Program-made: the position numbers and the translations under genes
NCBI GenBank assembly: GCA_947588955.1
Contig: CANPYX010000017.1
Location: 1 to 48,579, forward strand
DNA: 48,579 nt
Reading direction: 5' to 3'
Origin: an uncultured Oscillospiraceae bacterium
GTDB lineage: Bacteria > Bacillota > Clostridia > Oscillospirales > Oscillospiraceae
Shown here: positions 1 through 48,579 of the stretch, in pieces
How the letters are laid out: the number at the start of each line of letters is the position of its first letter
Numbering within the stretch: the stretch's first letter is position 1
Notes under the pieces: generated by a model
What the model saw: only the letters and a program-made list of their open reading frames with translations
Databases searched by the model: none
Told to the model about the DNA's origin: nothing

Positions 1-215
1 AACTGTGGTTTTTTCCGCAAAAAAGCGGGACTGCGAAAATTCACATCTCAGTCGGCGTGTATTTTCACAGCCCCAAAGGGGAACGTGCGGAAAAAATCCC
101 TGAATTCTGCGGAATTCAGGGATTTTTTCCTGCTGTCACGGTTCGCGCACTCGCTGCGCTCGCACACTCACCGTGACAAAAGGTGATTTTTCCGACGTAC
201 ATGCCGCCGGAAAAA
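1..215 (-). repeat. Modular hairpin repeat, copy 1 (reads leftward)
   Basis: Read on the minus strand this copy has the order shared by the other copies. Module 1 is a TTTTTCCG/CGGAAAAA hairpin (arms 208-215 and 187-194). Then come the linker AAATCACCTTTTGTC and module 2, with outer arms TGTCACGGT/ACCGTGACA (170-178 and 134-142). After the linker GCAG comes module 3, a perfect 19-bp stem with loop CGCA (89-130), then the linker CGCACGTTCCCC. Module 4 is only a 4-bp CCCC/GGGG hairpin (71-81). It runs straight into GGGGCTGTGAAAA (minus strand, 62-74), which looks like the end of another inverted-repeat element continuing towards base 1. The copy starts about 30 bases after the stop codon of the pectate lyase gene. 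The module 3 stem has no sequence in common with those of copies 2 and 3 beyond the closing GGAA/TTCC, yet the loop and linkers are the same. Confidence 0.85.
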
Positions 216-246
216 TATTTAATTTTGAATTTTCCGGCAGCTTAAG

Positions 247-4180: not shown

Positions 4181-5347
4181 TCACTTCTTTTTTCCACTCA
4201 ATTTTAAAGAAATTGCGGAAACAATGAGAAAAACGGCGAGGATGCCGGCGGAGAGCACCGCCGAGCCGCGAAGTGCGGAGGAGAAGTCCCGCGAGGCGAT
4301 CTCGCCCACGCGCCCCGCAAGGTACGCGCCAACGGCGGCGTCGCCGGAGATGAGGGACATCGCCACCGCCGCCAGCCCCGCCGAGAGGACGCCGTGGAGG
4401 AGCTTGCCGAGTATGTAGGAGCGGGCGGAGAGCCCGGTGGAGCCTAAGAAGGAGAGAACCTGGCAGTGTACCGAGAGCCCAGCCCAGCCCAGCATAAACG
4501 CCGCCATAGCCACGGATGCGGTGAGGGGACCTGACACGTCTCTGAGGCACCAGACGCCGCTTGTGAGCTCCAGAAGACCGGTTATGAGCATCTGCGCCCA
4601 CTCGCTGTCAAAGCCCAGGAAGCCGAACACAGCTCCCAGCGCCCCCGCCAGCGCGTCCATGATGCCAGAAAGGTACAAAAGCCGCAGAAGAACCGTGAAG
4701 AATATGACAAACCCGCATATGCCCAGGCACGAGGTGAAGGAGGAGCTGACCGATCTCACAAAGGCGGCGGGGAAGGAGGCGCGCGGGGCGTCATCACGGG
4801 ATGCGCGGGTTATCCCGCCGCGTCCGCCGTAATTTCGGAATATGAGCCCCACCAGCACGGAGGCGAGTATGTGGGTGAGGTACAGCACCGCTCCCACGGC
4901 GCCGGAGGAGAATATGCCCGCGCCCACCACGCCGAAGATGAAGGCGGGACCGGAGTTGTTGGAGAAGGCGAGCATACGCTCGGCCTCCCGGCGGGATATT
5001 TTTTTGCCCTCATAGAGGCTTATCACGGTTTTCGCGCCCACGGGATAGCCGCCCACAAAACCGAGAATCAGCGCCGGGGCGCAGCCGCCCCCCACGTTGA
5101 AAAGCGGCTCCATCACCGGAGAGAGCACCCGCCCCAGCCTCTCCGCCAGCCCCAGCTCCACCGTGAGGGAGGATATGACGAAGAACGGAAAGAGGGAGGG
5201 AATCAGCACGTTGAAGCACATATCCACACCGCTTTTCGCCGCCTCCACCGTCCGGGCGGGCAGGAGTATGAGCCCCGCCATAACCCCCAAAAGTCCCAGG
5301 ACCGTGACAAGGTCGAATATCCTCTGCCGCACCGTATAAATTCCCAT
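4181..5347 (-). CDS. ylbJ: Sporulation integral membrane protein YlbJ
   Basis: 388 residues, close to the usual ~400 for YlbJ. It is a polytopic membrane protein of the nucleoside-recognition/Gate superfamily. Gate-like segments are GGYPVGAKTV (~120) and FSNNSGPAFIFG (~148), with about eight to ten hydrophobic helices and a basic C-terminus. In Bacillus YlbJ is made under sigma-E and is needed for a heat-resistant spore coat/cortex. The start has GGAGG about eight bases upstream. It is transcribed away from yqfC, so the ~106-bp gap probably holds two divergent sporulation promoters, but I could not place a convincing sigma-E site there. Confidence 0.9.
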   Translation of the reverse strand: MGIYTVRQRIFDLVTVLGLLGVMAGLILLPARTVEAAKSGVDMCFNVLIPSLFPFFVISSLTVELGLAERLGRVLSPVMEPLFNVGGGCAPALILGFVGGYPVGAKTVISLYEGKKISRREAERMLAFSNNSGPAFIFGVVGAGIFSSGAVGAVLYLTHILASVLVGLIFRNYGGRGGITRASRDDAPRASFPAAFVRSVSSSFTSCLGICGFVIFFTVLLRLLYLSGIMDALAGALGAVFGFLGFDSEWAQMLITGLLELTSGVWCLRDVSGPLTASVAMAAFMLGWAGLSVHCQVLSFLGSTGLSARSYILGKLLHGVLSAGLAAVAMSLISGDAAVGAYLAGRVGEIASRDFSSALRGSAVLSAGILAVFLIVSAISLKLSGKKK

Positions 5348-5453
5348 ATCCGCCGCCTCCCCAAGGTTTTCAAATCAAGTCTATGCCGGTACAATCCTAA
5401 ATTTGCCACTCCCTTCATAAGCTTTAATGATACAGGCTATGGAGGCGAACAGC

Positions 5454-5746: not shown

Positions 5747-6928
5747 ATGGGAGCGATAATGGACCTTATAAGCGGACGCGTGCGTGTGGAGCTGCGGTGC
5801 CGGTACTCCGAACGGGCGGTGAACATCTGCGCCCGCCACCACATCGAATTCCGCGATCTCACAAGGACGCCGGAGGGGAACGCCTGCCTCACCGTCTCCA
5901 TACCGGGGTATATGAAGCTCCGGGAGGTGGCGCGGGACACCGGAGCCTTCACCGTGGGCATAGTTTTGAGAAGGGGCGCGCCGTTTTTCCTCTGGAGGCT
6001 CAGGAAAAGGTACGCGCTGTTTTTGGGGCTTGCGCTGTGCGCCGTACTCACGGGGCTGTCCACGCTATACGTCTGGCAGATAGACGTGACGGGCAACGAG
6101 ACGGTGCCCACCTCAAAGATTTTGGCGGCGCTGAGAAATAACGGGGTGGACATCGGCACGTGCGTTTTGGACATCGCCGAGTCGCCAATAGCCAACAAAA
6201 TGCTCCTGGACGTGCCGGAGCTTTCATTTATCACCCTCAACTCCCACGGCAGCAGGATAGACGTGGTGGTTCGGGAGAAGGTGTTACGGCCGGAGCTTTA
6301 CGACCCGGACGCGTGCGTCGGGGTTTTTGCCAAAAAGCCGGGTATAATAACTGAGATCACCGCCCTTGAGGGCTGGAGCCTCCGGGAGCCGGGGGACGCG
6401 GTGGACACCGGCGACGAGCTCATCTCCTCCTATGTCCCGGTTGGACAGGGCTACAATACCCACGCATCGGGGGAGGTTTGGGCGCGGACCTGGTACGAGC
6501 TTACGCTGAAAATGCCCCTGGAGACGGCAAAAAAGGAGTATACGGGCAGGACAAAGACCCGCACCGCCGTAATTTTGGGCGGAAAAAGAATAAATCTTTA
6601 TTTTATGGGTGGAAATCCGTATACAAGTTGTGATAAAATTACAACGTACAAAAGGCTGACCCTCCCCGGAGGGGGGGTCCTGCCGGTGACGATAGTCCGG
6701 GAGAGGTACGAGGAGTACGAGAGCGCCGCCTCCGCCTTCACACGGGAGGAGGCGGAGAAGCTCCTCTCCGCACACCTTCTTGAGACCGTGGAGCGGGAGA
6801 TAGGCGACGGGTACGTGGCTGACTTCGACCTTTCAAGCGACGTTTCGGACGGCGTCATCTCCGTCACACTCACCGCCGAGTGCGTGGAGCAGATAGGGCA
6901 GGAGCGGGCAGAGGACGGCACCGAGTAG
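5747..6928 (+). CDS. yqfD: Sporulation protein YqfD
   Basis: 393 residues from ATG 5747; a second ATG at 5759 has a better-placed GGGAG and is possible. The order is a ~85-residue cytoplasmic N-terminal domain, one membrane helix (LFLGLALCAVLTGLSTLYVW, ~90-110), and a long extracytoplasmic part with POTRA-like VTGNETVP and REKVLRPE segments. This is the IV/YqfD family layout. YqfD is a sigma-E-controlled membrane protein required for full sporulation in bacilli. It follows yqfC by eight bases and precedes phoH by 36, the conserved Firmicutes order yqfC-yqfD-phoH. Confidence 0.9.
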   Translation: MGAIMDLISGRVRVELRCRYSERAVNICARHHIEFRDLTRTPEGNACLTVSIPGYMKLREVARDTGAFTVGIVLRRGAPFFLWRLRKRYALFLGLALCAVLTGLSTLYVWQIDVTGNETVPTSKILAALRNNGVDIGTCVLDIAESPIANKMLLDVPELSFITLNSHGSRIDVVVREKVLRPELYDPDACVGVFAKKPGIITEITALEGWSLREPGDAVDTGDELISSYVPVGQGYNTHASGEVWARTWYELTLKMPLETAKKEYTGRTKTRTAVILGGKRINLYFMGGNPYTSCDKITTYKRLTLPGGGVLPVTIVRERYEEYESAASAFTREEAEKLLSAHLLETVEREIGDGYVADFDLSSDVSDGVISVTLTAECVEQIGQERAEDGTE

Positions 6929-9981: not shown

Positions 9982-10872
9982 ATGATAAAACGTACAGCTC
10001 TTATAACAGTAGTCGGGCGGCCCAACGTGGGCAAGTCCACCCTTGTGAACGCCATGGTGGGGGAGAAGGTGTCCATCGTCACGCCCAAGCCCCAGACCAC
10101 CCGAAACAGGATATTCGGCGTGGCTGAGCGCGGGGAGACGCAGCTCGTCTTTGCCGACACGCCGGGGTTCCACAAGGCCCGCACCAAGCTGGGCGACTAT
10201 ATGGTCCATGTGGTGGAGGAGGCGGTGGACGACGACGTGGACGCCGTCTGCCTTGTGGTGGAGCCCAAGGCGAGCATAGGACCACAGGAGGCGGGGCTAA
10301 TTGCCAGGATAAAGGCGTCAAAGGCCCCCGCGGTGCTGGCCATAAACAAGATTGACACCGTGGAAAAGCCGGAGCTCCTGCCGGTCATAGCCCTTTACGC
10401 CAAGGAGCTTGACTGGGCGGCTGTGGTGCCCGTCTCCGCCCGCCGCGGGCAGGGGATAGAGGAGCTCTTTGATGAGCTTGAAAAATTCGCCAAGGAGGGG
10501 CAGCAGCTCTTCCCTGAGGACATGATAACCGACCAGACCACCAGCCAGATGTGCGCGGAGATCATCCGGGAAAAGCTCCTTTTGAACCTCCAGTCCGAGG
10601 TCCCCCACGGCACGGCGGTGGAGATAACCGCATTCACCGAGCGCGGGGACGGGGTCACGGAGATCACCGCCACCATATACTGCGAGCGGGAGAGCCACAA
10701 GGGGATAATCATCGGCAAAAACGGCGAGAAGCTCAAGGCCGTGGGCGAGGCGGCGCGGCGCGACATGGAGAAGCTCCTGGAGCAAAGGGTCTACCTCAAC
10801 ACCTGGGTGAAGGTGAAGGAGAACTGGCGCGACTCCGGCGCGAACCTCAAAACCTTCGGCTACACAGAATAA
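9982..10872 (+). CDS. era: GTPase Era
   Basis: 296 residues with the G motifs GRPNVGKST (12-20), the effector loop PQTTRNRI, DTPGFHK (~60) and NKID (~122), then a C-terminal KH domain containing GVTEITATI and IIGKNGEKLK. Era binds the 3' end of 16S rRNA and supports 30S assembly. It follows ybeY by 28 bases and is followed by yqzL and recO, the standard Firmicutes order. Confidence 0.97.
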   Translation: MIKRTALITVVGRPNVGKSTLVNAMVGEKVSIVTPKPQTTRNRIFGVAERGETQLVFADTPGFHKARTKLGDYMVHVVEEAVDDDVDAVCLVVEPKASIGPQEAGLIARIKASKAPAVLAINKIDTVEKPELLPVIALYAKELDWAAVVPVSARRGQGIEELFDELEKFAKEGQQLFPEDMITDQTTSQMCAEIIREKLLLNLQSEVPHGTAVEITAFTERGDGVTEITATIYCERESHKGIIIGKNGEKLKAVGEAARRDMEKLLEQRVYLNTWVKVKENWRDSGANLKTFGYTE

Positions 10873-10939
10873 TTTCCCTCTAATAATCCCCGCGTGTGCG
10901 CAAAACCTAACTACGCGGGTGGACCGGAGAGGACAGAGG

Positions 10940-11047
10940 ATGGATATTTCAGGACTTTGGCGGCTTTTCTGGGCGACGGGGGATATACGGATATTCCTCG
11001 CCGCCAAAAAGCTGGAAAACGAGAGAGAGGAAAACGCGGCGCCCTGA
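10940..11047 (+). CDS. yqzL: YqzL-family small protein, 35 aa
   Basis: A 35-residue gene that is easily missed. The product begins MDISGLWRLFWATGDIRIF and continues with a KLENEREE tail. It matches the YqzL pattern (W-x-x-F-x-x-TG-x-I, then KxLE) and occupies the same era-recO position as yqzL in Bacillus. AGAGG precedes the ATG. Function of the family is unknown. An overlapping 68-residue frame at 10894-11100 has no such support and is taken as spurious. Confidence 0.8.
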   Translation: MDISGLWRLFWATGDIRIFLAAKKLENEREENAAP

Positions 11048-30921: not shown

Positions 30922-30956
30922 ATATCGAAAAAGCCCGTCAGGGCTTTTTCGATATT
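30922..30956 (+). terminator. Intrinsic terminator after pullulanase
   Basis: Perfect 15-bp stem ATATCGAAAAAGCCC/GGGCTTTTTCGATAT around GTCA (30922-30955). The T-run is inside the stem arm, so it may end transcription on both strands, and some read-through to the debranching enzyme gene 30 bases later is likely. Confidence 0.75.
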
Positions 30957-35247: not shown

Positions 35248-35346
35248 TTCACCCGACAATGGCATTATACATCAAACATAAGCAAAAGTCAAGCAAAAAT
35301 AATCAAAAATTAATTCGTTTTTTGCATATAAGAAAACTATCCCAAC

Positions 35347-35375
35347 CGCTCCGGCGATTTTAAATCGCCGGAGCG
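35347..35375 (+). repeat. Palindrome copy upstream of hairpin repeat 2
   Basis: CCGCTCCGGCGAT ... ATCGCCGGAGCG around TTTTAA forms a long stem. It is nearly identical to the terminator hairpin at 35601-35635 but one G is missing in the right arm and no T-run follows. It lies about 100 bases after the HAD gene; with its twin it brackets hairpin-repeat copy 2. The 35248-35346 stretch before it is AT-rich and I see nothing else in it. Confidence 0.7.
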
Positions 35376-35409
35376 TTCAGACTGTTGACAAACCCCGGAT
35401 AAGAGTAAG

Positions 35410-35598
35410 CCCCCATTTTAACATTTTTCCGGTGGCATGTACGTCGGAAAAATCACCTTTTGTCGCGCAAGTGTGCCGCCTCCGGCGGTGCGCGCAGCGC
35501 GACAGCAGGAAGACCTCCGAGAAAAGCCCGCAGGCTTTTCTCGGAGGTCTTCCGCACGTTCCCCTTGTGGACAAAGGCCAGCGGCCTTTGTCCACAAG
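35410..35598 (+). repeat. Modular hairpin repeat, copy 2
   Basis: Order: CCCCCATTTTAACA lead-in (35410), module 1 TTTTTCCG/CGGAAAAA (35424-35431, 35445-35452), linker AATCACCTTT, module 2 outer arms TGTCGCGC/GCGCGACA (35461-35468, 35497-35504). Then come linker GCAG, module 3 with a perfect 21-bp stem and loop CGCA (35508-35553), linker CGCACGTTCCCC, and module 4 with a 16-bp stem CTTGTGGACAAAGGCC and loop AGC (35564-35598). It lies between the convergent HAD and anti-sigma genes, bracketed by two copies of another palindrome. Confidence 0.88.
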
Positions 35599-35600
35599 CT

Positions 35601-35635
35601 AACCGCTCCGGCGATTTTAAATCGCCGGAGCGGTT
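35601..35635. terminator. Bidirectional terminator after the anti-sigma gene
   Basis: A 16-bp stem, AACCGCTCCGGCGATT with AATCGCCGGAGCGGTT, starts right after the anti-sigma stop codon (35636-35638). T-runs are short (TTTT on the plus strand). Near-identical to the palindrome at 35347-35375. Confidence 0.7.
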
Positions 35636-43355: not shown

Positions 43356-44680
43356 AAAAGGGCTCGTTAAAGCGGGAGTTTATTTTGGCGGTGGCGGTGA
43401 CGCTGACACTTGTGGCGGCGGCGTCGGCGCTGACGGTCTGGGGGTGCTGGGCGCTGAGGCGCGCTCTTGTGCCAAGGCCCGACAGCCTCATTTTGAGGGC
43501 GACCTTCAAAAGCCCCGACGGGTGGACGGAGGACACGAATATATACGTGGAGCCCGACGGGGACGAGGTGACGCTGGGCGAGCCGGCGGCACGTCTGGAG
43601 ATCCGGCCGGGGGCGCATACTGAGCGGGAGAGCGATGAGCCGGAGGACGCGGGGGAGAGGCCGGTGACGGCATATACATTCAGGCTTTTGAGCCCGGAGT
43701 TCAGCGCGTACAAAAACGGCCCACGCCGCGGGGCGGCGTACATCGCGGCGGGTGTTGCGATGGCGGTGCTGCCGGCACTCTATGCCGTCGCGGGGACGGT
43801 GCTGTGCGGGCTGTGGATATTCAGGCGCAAGCTGGCGCCGGCGATAGACGTGCTGGAGGACGCCACGGGGCACATAAGCGGTCAAGACCTGGATTTCAGG
43901 GTGGAGAGCCCCACGAACAACGAGCTGGGGAGGCTGTGCGCGTCCTTTGAGAGGATGCGGGCGGCGCTTTACGACAATAACCTGGTTCTCTGGCGGGCGC
44001 TGGAGGAGAGGCGGAGCACAATGGCGAGCGTGGCGCACGATCTGAGGAACCCACTGGCGATAATGGAGGGGACAGTGGAGAACGTGAGGGCCATGGCGGA
44101 AGCTGGGGAGCTGACGGGGGAGAGGCTGGAGGCGGCGCTGGGGAATATTGACGCCACTGCGAAAAGAATGGAGCGGTACACGGACTACATCAGGGATATC
44201 GACGAGGTGGAGGAGCTGCCGGTGAATTTGGAGCCCGTGGAGCTTCCCGGATTTCTCCACAGGGCGGCGGAGAGCGTGGCGATGCTGGCGGGGGAAAAGA
44301 CCGTGGGCGCGGCGTTCGACGTGCCGGAGTGTCGGGCGGAGCTGGACGGGGAGATTTTTTACAGGGTGCTGGAGAACGTTGTATCAAACGCCGTCAGGTA
44401 CGCCAAAAGCCGGGTGGACATGGAATTTTCCCTGCGGAGGGATTTGCTGACGGTGCGCGTCATCGACGACGGGCCGGGGTTTTCGGACGCCATGCTCAGC
44501 CGCCGGAACAGCCTTTATTACACCGAGGACCCCACGGGCGAACACCTGGGGTTGGGCCTTGCCACGGGGCGGATACTTTGCGAAAAGCACGGCGGCGGAT
44601 TGAGGATCAGGAACAGGGAAGGGGGAGGGGAAGTAGAAATTATGTTCCTCTTGTCACAAAAGGGCGAAGCCCTTTTGTGA
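43343..44680 (+). CDS. Sensor histidine kinase whose C-terminus is encoded by a hairpin repeat
   Basis: 445 residues. Membrane helix 1 (~12-38), an extracellular sensor domain (~40-130), helix 2 (~134-158), HAMP (~160-212), then HisKA with the phospho-His in MASVAHDLRNPLAI (~230). The catalytic domain has ENVVSNAVRYA (N box), DDGPGFSD (G1) and HLGLGLATGRIL (G2). The last ~12 residues, MFLLSQKGEALL, are encoded by module 4 of the hairpin repeat at 44646-44846, and the stop codon (44678-44680) lies in its stem. The original end probably followed the GGEVEI strand. Activity should be little affected. Confidence 0.92.
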   Translation: MEKVKKGSLKREFILAVAVTLTLVAAASALTVWGCWALRRALVPRPDSLILRATFKSPDGWTEDTNIYVEPDGDEVTLGEPAARLEIRPGAHTERESDEPEDAGERPVTAYTFRLLSPEFSAYKNGPRRGAAYIAAGVAMAVLPALYAVAGTVLCGLWIFRRKLAPAIDVLEDATGHISGQDLDFRVESPTNNELGRLCASFERMRAALYDNNLVLWRALEERRSTMASVAHDLRNPLAIMEGTVENVRAMAEAGELTGERLEAALGNIDATAKRMERYTDYIRDIDEVEELPVNLEPVELPGFLHRAAESVAMLAGEKTVGAAFDVPECRAELDGEIFYRVLENVVSNAVRYAKSRVDMEFSLRRDLLTVRVIDDGPGFSDAMLSRRNSLYYTEDPTGEHLGLGLATGRILCEKHGGGLRIRNREGGGEVEIMFLLSQKGEALL

Positions 44681-44846
44681 CAAGAGGAGGGGGAACGTGC
44701 GGAAGACCTCCGGGAAAAGCCTGCGGGCTTTTCCCGGAGGTCTTCCTGCTGTCGCGCGGCGCGCGCCGCCGTAGGCGACACACTTGCGCGACATAAGGTG
44801 ATTTTTCGCGAGGCAAAGCCCCGCGAAAAATGTTTTATTGGGGGAT
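44646..44846 (-). repeat. Modular hairpin repeat, copy 3 (reads leftward)
   Basis: On the minus strand the lead-in is CCCCCAATAAAACA. Module 1 has changed arms TTTTTCGCG/CGCGAAAAA (44822-44830, 44802-44810). Module 2 has outer arms TGTCGCGC/GCGCGACA (44786-44793, 44750-44757). Module 3 is a 21-bp stem with loop CGCA (44701-44746). The linker CGCACGTTCCCC follows, then module 4, a perfect 20-bp stem with loop TTC (44646-44688). Module 3 differs from copy 2 by one paired change (A-T to G-C). Module 4 overlaps the 3' end of the histidine kinase gene. Confidence 0.88.
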
Positions 44847-48417: not shown

Positions 48418-48514
48418 CCTCATAAAACATTTTTCCGGCGGCATGTACGTCGGAAAAATCACCTTTTGTCGCGCAAGTGTGCCGCCTTTGGCGGCGCGCG
48501 CAGCGCGACAGCAG
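48418..48514 (+). repeat. Modular hairpin repeat, copy 4 (truncated)
   Basis: Lead-in CCTCATAAAACA, module 1 TTTTTCCG/CGGAAAAA (48430-48437, 48451-48458), linker AATCACCTTT, module 2 outer arms TGTCGCGC/GCGCGACA (48467-48474, 48503-48510) and linker GCAG. Module 3 and the CGCACGTTCCCC linker are missing; the copy runs directly into AAAAAGGGGCTGTGAAAA. Up to that point it is almost identical to copy 2. It starts 16 bases after the GH28 stop codon. Confidence 0.85.
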
Positions 48515-48579
48515 AAAAAGGGGCTGTGAAAAAAGTCCCGTAAAAAAGGAAGAGAGTTACCAAGGGACCCTGGTAACTC
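48515..48579 (+). mobile_element. Possible end of a GGGGCTGTGAAAA inverted-repeat element, cut by the window edge
   Basis: GGGGCTGTGAAAA begins at 48520. The same words occur on the minus strand at 62-74 next to repeat copy 1, and AGTCCCG follows in both cases. A 9-bp hairpin GAGTTACCA/TGGTAACTC (48554-48562, 48571-48579) ends exactly at the window edge. The shape suggests the end of an insertion sequence or MITE; the rest is outside. Confidence 0.4.

What the first reader, a model, noticed from the sequence alone, without database searches (positions are those of the whole stretch)
35410..35598. A dispersed family of modular multi-hairpin repeats whose stems covary between copies
Seen directly: four copies (1-215 minus, 35410-35598 plus, 44646-44846 minus, 48418-48514 plus) share the fixed linkers AAATCACCTT, GCAG and CGCACGTTCCCC and a CGCA loop, but the stems change on both arms together. 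Module 1 is TTTTTCCG/CGGAAAAA or TTTTTCGCG/CGCGAAAAA. Module 2 is TGTCGCGC/GCGCGACA or TGTCACGGT/ACCGTGACA. Module 3 is a 19-bp or 21-bp perfect stem of unrelated sequence; even the two similar copies differ by a paired A-T to G-C change. Module 4 is 4, 16 or 20 bp, again different. Stem replacement with conserved joints is not what decay of a normal MITE gives. It implies selection on structure, or a process that rewrites or swaps hairpins (gene conversion, template switching or a transposase acting on hairpin DNA). I know of no described family of this design.
Basis: partly seen in the sequence, partly recalled or inferred. Interest (0 to 1): 0.88.

Follow-up and report, generated by a model that had tools for sequence, protein, structure and literature searches.

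The report
Terminator-seeking DNA elements with swapped hairpins
The window holds four copies of a large family of small mobile DNA elements built from interchangeable hairpins that settle next to gene ends in gut bacteria of the Oscillospiraceae; between two sister species the hairpins inside a copy have often been exchanged while the copy itself stayed in place.

Summary
A subset of copies carries terminal repeats that match those of IS1182-family insertion sequences of the genus. IS and element both sit beside terminator palindromes and duplicate them; one insertion is present in a sister species and absent here. So these are IS1182-type MITEs. The covarying stems are explained largely by in-place module exchange: at 31 loci with both flanks orthologous (mean 96% identity) the second hairpin is replaced in 22 and the third in 17. 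Hairpins two and three assort independently within a genome. Hairpins one and two form a core conserved across genera with 94 G-U against 6 A-C pairs on one strand, so that strand probably folds as RNA or single-stranded DNA. Shown: family, terminal repeats, palindrome duplication, exchange. Inferred: trans-mobilisation, recombination route, RNA function. A new variant of a known kind, close in style to pneumococcal BOX.

The parts
35344..35375 (.). left copy of the duplicated terminator palindrome AACCGCTCCGGCGATTTTAAATCGCCGGAGCG (target duplication)
   Evidence: 32-bp exact direct repeat with 35601-35632
35379..35393 (+). 5' terminal inverted repeat AGACTGTTGACAAAC (long-leader type)
   Evidence: pattern search, 29 hits against 1 control; fixed distance to M1
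35422..35454 (+). module 1 hairpin (M1) of the 35.4-kb copy
35461..35504 (+). module 2 hairpin (M2) with inner stem; GCAG linker follows at 35505-35508
35509..35552 (+). module 3 hairpin (M3), variable arms, CGCA tip
35553..35564 (+). joint CGCACGTTCCCC
35565..35598 (+). module 4 hairpin (M4), terminator-like end hairpin
35586..35600 (-). 3' terminal inverted repeat AGCTTGTGGACAAAG, overlapping the right arm of M4
35601..35632 (.). right copy of the duplicated terminator palindrome
78..221 (-). second copy (M1 to joint); the place of M4 is taken by a contig-end repeat
44646..44846 (-). third copy, M1 to M4 (model match 44690-44836)
48426..48517 (+). fourth copy, M1 and M2 only, then the contig-end repeat
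30930..30947 (.). empty site: terminator palindrome core AAAGCCCGTCAGGGCTTT, duplicated around an element in the sister genome (L089 about 5111-5438)

Best explanation
A family of non-autonomous, IS1182-dependent mobile elements (MITEs) that insert at terminator palindromes and duplicate the palindrome. The body is a chain of hairpin modules (M1-M2-M3-M4) with fixed joints. Shown: terminal repeats shared with IS1182-family IS whose ends also lie in this genome, palindrome duplication by IS and element, one clean insertion polymorphism, many positions shared between sister species, and in-place exchange of whole hairpins at those positions. Inferred: the IS1182 transposase moves the element in trans; hairpins are exchanged among the roughly 100 dispersed copies by short-tract gene conversion or replication template switching at the identical joints; arm-to-arm template switching and/or selection keeps each stem near perfect; the M1-M2 core is constrained as a single-stranded fold (RNA most likely) on the strand reading M1 to M4.
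For: Terminal repeats: a 5' repeat (11 or more of 15 matches) in 22 of 88 own and 26 of 93 sister copies, 47 of these 48 starting about 44-47 or 26-30 nt before M1, against 0 in control windows; 3' repeats in 35 of 76 and 31 of 85 against 1 and 1. The two repeat types match the two end types of IS1182 IS. Pattern AGNCTGTNGNCAAAS: 29 own hits against 1 control, 12 of them within 210 bp of a contig end, as multi-copy IS ends would be. IS protein: NF033551 440 bits, cut-off 270. Of 9 IS over the cut-off, 8 were fetched; 7 of the 8 have the same palindrome on both sides. Element palindrome duplications, e.g. 32 bp in the window and 27 bp in L080; empty site. Exchange: at 31 loci M2 identity is below 0.9 in 22 and M3 in 17, against 78 of 883 flank windows of similar size. 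In 13 of the 25 swapped loci M4 is retained and matches its own locus best (7 of the 17 with M3 swapped). M2 arm type and M3 tip type are independent (p 0.18 own, 0.66 sister), while the two arms of M2 are linked (0 of 2000 shuffles).
Against: No transposition was observed, and 66 of 88 own copies have no recognisable 5' repeat. Of five empty-site candidates (2 among 47 own, 3 among 44 sister copies with both flanks found), one is clean; L035/L222 and L092/L081 are partial losses, L031/L183 is unresolved, L040/L224 proved filled. The IS1182 profile found no match in the own genome at E<=1e-30, only IS pieces at contig ends. M1 tip and M3 tip are associated in the own genome, though not in the sister. 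In 12 of 25 swapped loci M4 changed too or is not distinctive. A MITE body conserved across many genera is unusual. Both genomes are fragmented (58 and about 100 contigs).
Confidence: 0.78

Rival explanations
1. A structured RNA family (3'-UTR or terminator-associated) whose stems covary because selection keeps the RNA fold; mobility is secondary.
For: Across 24 sequences (4 own, 3 congeners, 17 loci from 13 other genera) 21 of 31 M1-M2 pairs have changes on both sides, covariation score 0.419 against 0.157 shuffled; 94 G-U against 6 A-C on one strand. In the own genome the gene beyond M4 is on the opposite strand in 66 of the 81 copies with a called downstream gene, usually with its stop codon close to M4.
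Against: M3 stems show no excess of wobble on that strand (17 G-T, 36 A-C). Neighbour M3 stems differ by one full base pair twice as often as by one unpaired base (52 against 26). M2 arms are clear hybrids in 8 of 13 classifiable own nested copies. Genes on the M1 side run toward the element in only 52 of 84 copies with a called upstream gene.
Confidence: 0.35
2. Stems stay perfect mainly because replication template switching copies one arm onto the other (quasipalindrome correction), so the covariation within modules is mutational, not selective.
For: Paired one-step changes in M3 have the transition:transversion ratio of the flanks (34:18 against 945:639, p=0.47). In-place paired transversions at orthologous loci: M3 of L061/L144 and L052/L171, M4 of L086/L161. 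Mechanism described in PMC8794818 (abstract and opening paragraphs seen).
Against: Unpaired single changes are nearly all transitions (24:2, p=0.0004 against flanks), which fits tolerance of wobble-like mismatches under selection. The pairs compared are not independent events, and conversion from another copy could give the same paired changes.
Confidence: 0.45
3. The module swaps are assembly errors of short-read genomes at repeats.
For: Both genomes are fragmented (the sister is a named MAG) and the nested insert of about 110 nt is near read length (read length not known here).
Against: Both flanks of the 31 loci are syntenic, so each swap would need two compensating misjoins. The M2-M3 and M3-M4 joints are 4 and 12 nt, below usual k-mers (general knowledge). 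A half-swapped M3 (L058/L230) lies inside an otherwise orthologous copy.
Confidence: 0.05

Closest known systems
BOX elements of Streptococcus pneumoniae (PMC3049150, passages read)
   Same: Dispersed, intergenic, modular (boxA-boxB-boxC), predicted to fold as stem-loops, with TIRs and target duplications; found in clusters with other repeats, one of them terminator-like (SPRITE).
   Different: Here modules are swapped in place between orthologous loci, the likely mobiliser is IS1182-type, the target duplication is a terminator palindrome, and the core spans many genera.
IS1272 / TnSha1, IS1182 family (PMC4923244, passages read)
   Same: IS1182-family element that targets terminator hairpins without primary sequence specificity; the paper cites Siguier 2015 (not seen) that some IS1182 members target palindromes.
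   Different: IS1272 is reported there to lose part of the target and make no duplication; the IS here duplicates the palindrome. The hairpin element carries no transposase.
Template-switch maintained RNA hairpins (PMC8794818, abstract and opening paragraphs seen)
   Same: Perfect stems that change on both arms in one step.
   Different: That paper concerns RNA genes; here whole hairpins are also exchanged between dispersed mobile copies.

Membership tests
MITE (non-autonomous DNA transposon) | terminal inverted repeats | tested here: met
   5' repeat in 22 of 88 own copies against 0 controls, 3' repeat in 35 of 76 against 1; the other copies lack a recognisable repeat
MITE (non-autonomous DNA transposon) | target duplication and empty site | tested here: met
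   window palindrome 32 bp, L080 27 bp (output partly cut, so a minimum); one clean empty site at window 30930-30947
MITE (non-autonomous DNA transposon) | no own transposase, ends shared with an autonomous IS | tested here: met
   IS ends at contig breaks of the own genome; a full IS with the same ends in the sister genome
MITE (non-autonomous DNA transposon) | mobilised in trans | not testable with these tools
   needs an experiment
IS1182 family (the mobiliser) | IS1182 transposase profile | tested here: met
   NF033551 440 bits, cut-off 270; Pfam DUF772, DDE_Tnp_1 and DDE_Tnp_1_6
Rfam RNA families | match at gathering score to any described family | tested here: not met
   window: none. 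25 loci at relaxed thresholds: no hit reached its gathering score; hits on elements were weak (E 0.02-0.7); a 6S-like hit in L047 (42.6 bits, gathering 46.4) lies beside the element
structured RNA | covariation above controls with strand-specific wobble | tested here: met
   M1-M2 core only; M3 shows no such wobble bias
structured RNA | expression as RNA | not testable with these tools
   no RNA-seq at hand
BOX elements | sequence homology to boxA/B/C | not tested
   resemblance is in design only

The most novel reading that the evidence does not exclude
An active hairpin-exchange system: dispersed elements stay at fixed loci while their hairpin cassettes are shuffled through constant joints as short as 4-12 nt, perhaps by the palindrome-seeking IS1182 transposase itself acting on hairpin DNA and not by ordinary homologous recombination; the constant M1-M2 core would then be a family-wide RNA or single-stranded DNA signal.
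Probability: 0.1. Interest if true: 0.9.

Novelty: new variant of a known kind. Interest (0 to 1): 0.72.

Why it matters
Covariation is the usual proof of RNA function. Here much of it arises because whole hairpins are exchanged between mobile copies, seen by comparing the same loci in two sister species. That gives a natural test bed for how perfect hairpins arise and stay perfect, a question usually put to RNA genes. It also shows IS1182-type elements that duplicate whole terminator palindromes, with a wide satellite family beside genes of gut bacteria that I found described in none of seven literature searches, and a conserved one-strand core whose function can be tested.

Tried and rejected
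Rejected: match to an Rfam family. Rejected as full explanation: pure RNA selection (no M3 wobble bias, hybrid M2 arms) and assembly artefact (synteny of both flanks). Considered from memory and not tested: integron attC-like, IS200/IS605- or RAYT-linked designs. Led nowhere: identity of the repeat GGGGCTGTGAAAA at both window ends; identity of the nested insert of about 110 nt (no gathering-level Rfam match).

Rows dropped and limits: of 36 pairs with both flanks matched, 4 lacked a parsed module set, leaving 32 pairs at 31 own loci (L023 pairs twice with a tandem M1 in L178). Copies without a parsed joint (10 of 91 own, 10 of 96 sister) are left out of module counts, and nested copies whose arms could not be classed (3 of 16 own, 2 of 24 sister) out of the hybrid counts. 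On recount, one of nine own arm hybrids by pattern (L033) is a single-base variant of a matched arm, so I give 8 of 13; the Fisher test used 9 of 13. The sister figure, 6 of 22, is by pattern and was not re-read copy by copy. Outputs were cut in the middle, so the number of palindrome duplications is a minimum. R1 scored at most 10 candidates per genome in the family search and 92 in the genus search. Of the family-wide hits I read 17 loci from 13 other genera; the others rest on model scores with rough E-values. Gene context rests on a simple ORF caller. IS1182 profile hits at E<=1e-30: 12 of 20 genomes with 15 or more R1 hits, 3 of 14 with 6 or fewer; too few and too assembly-dependent to weigh. 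Papers: 7 searches listed no description of this family; they cover the held open-access library only. PMC10969869 was searched for terms only: no mention of IS1182, modular, mosaic or gene conversion.

Full report
What was checked. The four copies exist as described. The window is a whole contig (C17) of a 2.56-Mb, 58-contig genome. The joint AAAATCACCTT has 66 exact hits in the genome against 0 for the reversed control (at least two are not elements), and CGCACGTTCCCC 85 with up to one mismatch against 10. Of the 34 genomes of the genus, this one included, 20 have 15 or more hits and 14 have 6 or fewer (3 of them none). In the taxonomic family 135 of 300 genomes and 64 of 106 genera have a hit at E<=1e-5.

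Anatomy. Reading the strand on which the 35.4-kb copy was found: a 5' terminal repeat, an AT-rich leader, hairpin M1, CACCTT, hairpin M2 with an inner hairpin, GCAG, hairpin M3 with a CGCA tip, the joint CGCACGTTCCCC (or CTGAACGTTCCCC), and one or more end hairpins M4 that look like terminators. M2 has three common outer-stem types and several loops. In 16 of 81 parsed own copies and 24 of 86 sister copies the M2 loop holds a second structured element of about 110 nt. That element also occurs elsewhere: of 53 places among the loci held, 41 lie in an M2 by script and at least 7 of the other 12 are clearly outside by eye; its core has 31 exact hits in this genome and 39 in the sister.

Mobility. 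The 5' repeat comes in two forms, AGACTGTTGACAAAC starting about 44-47 nt and AGACTGTCAAAAAAC about 26-30 nt before M1. At 11 or more of 15 matches a 5' repeat is present in 22 of 88 own and 26 of 93 sister copies (47 of these 48 at the two distances), 0 in control windows; 3' repeats in 35 of 76 and 31 of 85, 1 and 1 in controls. The long-leader repeat is also the end of an insertion sequence at contig breaks of the own genome: of 29 pattern hits 12 lie within 210 bp of a contig end. A full copy in the sister genome encodes a 537-aa IS1182-family transposase (NF033551, 440 bits). Nine IS in the genus are over the family cut-off; of the eight fetched, seven lie between two copies of one palindrome, and in the eighth only one end was recognised. 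Two of the seven have the long-leader type of end, five the short-leader type. Elements do the same: the window copy lies between two exact copies of a 32-bp terminator palindrome. In the sister genome one element lies in a terminator that is undivided in this window, with 18 bp of the palindrome duplicated (17 of 18 identical). The own genome also has a 53-bp palindrome with the same ends (L111).

Exchange in place. Flanks of the paired loci are 96% identical. Of 47 own copies whose two flanks lie on one fetched sister locus, 45 are filled; of 44 sister copies, 41 (biased, since loci of both genomes were mostly fetched because they hold a copy). Positions are thus often shared. The contents are not: at 31 loci with all modules parsed, M2 is below 0.9 identity in 22 and M3 in 17: M2 alone 8, M3 alone 3, both 14, neither 6. 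Flank windows of 45 columns fall below 0.9 in 78 of 883, and in 22 of 128 of those nearest the element. In 13 of 25 swapped loci (7 of the 17 with M3 swapped) M4 is kept and is closer to its own orthologue than to any other own M4, so there the element was not simply lost and re-inserted; in the other 12 M4 changed too or is not distinctive. L058 carries an M3 whose right arm alone differs in type from its orthologue.

Mosaic structure. Within each genome, M2 arm type and M3 tip type are independent (mutual information p 0.18 own, 0.66 sister), as are M2 loop and M3 tip (0.65, 0.41), while the two arms of M2 are tightly linked (0 of 2000 shuffles). M1 tip and M3 tip are associated in the own genome (0 of 2000 shuffles) but not in the sister (p 0.70), a result against full independence. 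Arm hybrids of M2 occur in 0 of 65 own and 1 of 59 sister copies without the nested insert, but in 8 of 13 own (9 by pattern, one being a single-base variant) and 6 of 22 sister copies with it, as expected if recombination crosses over in the insert.

How stems stay perfect. M3 has 69 distinct sequences among 81 own copies and 77 among 86 sister copies; 58 and 63 copies are perfectly paired. Among 130 distinct M3 sequences, 52 pairs differ by exactly one base pair, 26 by one unpaired stem base, 16 by two non-partner positions. Paired steps have the transition:transversion ratio of the flanks (34:18 against 945:639, p=0.47), single steps do not (24:2, p=0.0004). The first fits one-step copying of one arm to the other, the second fits tolerance of wobble-like mismatches. 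These counts are not independent events, so I do not choose firmly.

The conserved core. Twenty fetched relatives (17 loci from 13 other genera, 3 congeners) keep M1 and M2 in sequence and order; 10 of the 17 have an upstream hairpin after GCCTCGCAGAGTT, and none of the 17 shows an M3 by eye. On 24 aligned sequences 21 of 31 pairs change on both sides, covariation 0.419 against 0.157 in shuffles and at most 0.103 when slid. G-U pairs outnumber A-C 94 to 6 on the M1-to-M4 strand, so that strand probably folds alone. In M3 the bias is the other way (17 G-T, 36 A-C, p 0.013). The gene beyond M4 is on the opposite strand in 66 of the 81 copies with a called downstream gene; the gene before M1 runs toward the element in 52 of 84. 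Whether the core is an RNA is open.

Verdict. IS1182-type MITEs of a modular design for which I found no description, with hairpins exchanged in place.

Noticed in passing
L028, L019, L047, L181, L020 (about 434-590) and others: A second dispersed structured element of about 110 nt (GGGGTCCCC-hairpin-GGGGAGAGGAGGAGCGAAG...GAGGTTAAGCGRCTTC...GACGACGA) with its own variable hairpins and fixed linkers; 31 exact core hits in this genome and 39 in the sister. In L020 it abuts the start of the tmRNA gene (575-929).
   Followed up: partly
window 1-77 and 48510-48579; also L029, L049, L062, L063, L114: Contig ends run into another repeat beginning GGGGCTGTGAAAA..., which takes the place of M4 in several copies; possibly another IS or palindromic repeat.
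   Followed up: no
L182 (sister of L009): A hairpin-rich insert of roughly 300 nt between M1 and M2, besides the nested element, absent from the own orthologue.
   Followed up: no
L089 about 10146-10998 and L104 about 5960-6680: Insertions of about 850 and 720 bp in the sister genome next to or in an element; the L104 one has a leader with a 5' terminal repeat at its far end.
   Followed up: no
L046 980-1200: A copy whose M1 is followed by a second, divergent M1-M2 pair with different stems (TTCCAAGG/CCTTGGAA and GGTCCCC/GGGGACC).
   Followed up: no
L047 1297-1494 minus: A sub-threshold 6S RNA match (42.6 bits, gathering 46.4), likely the 6S gene.
   Followed up: no
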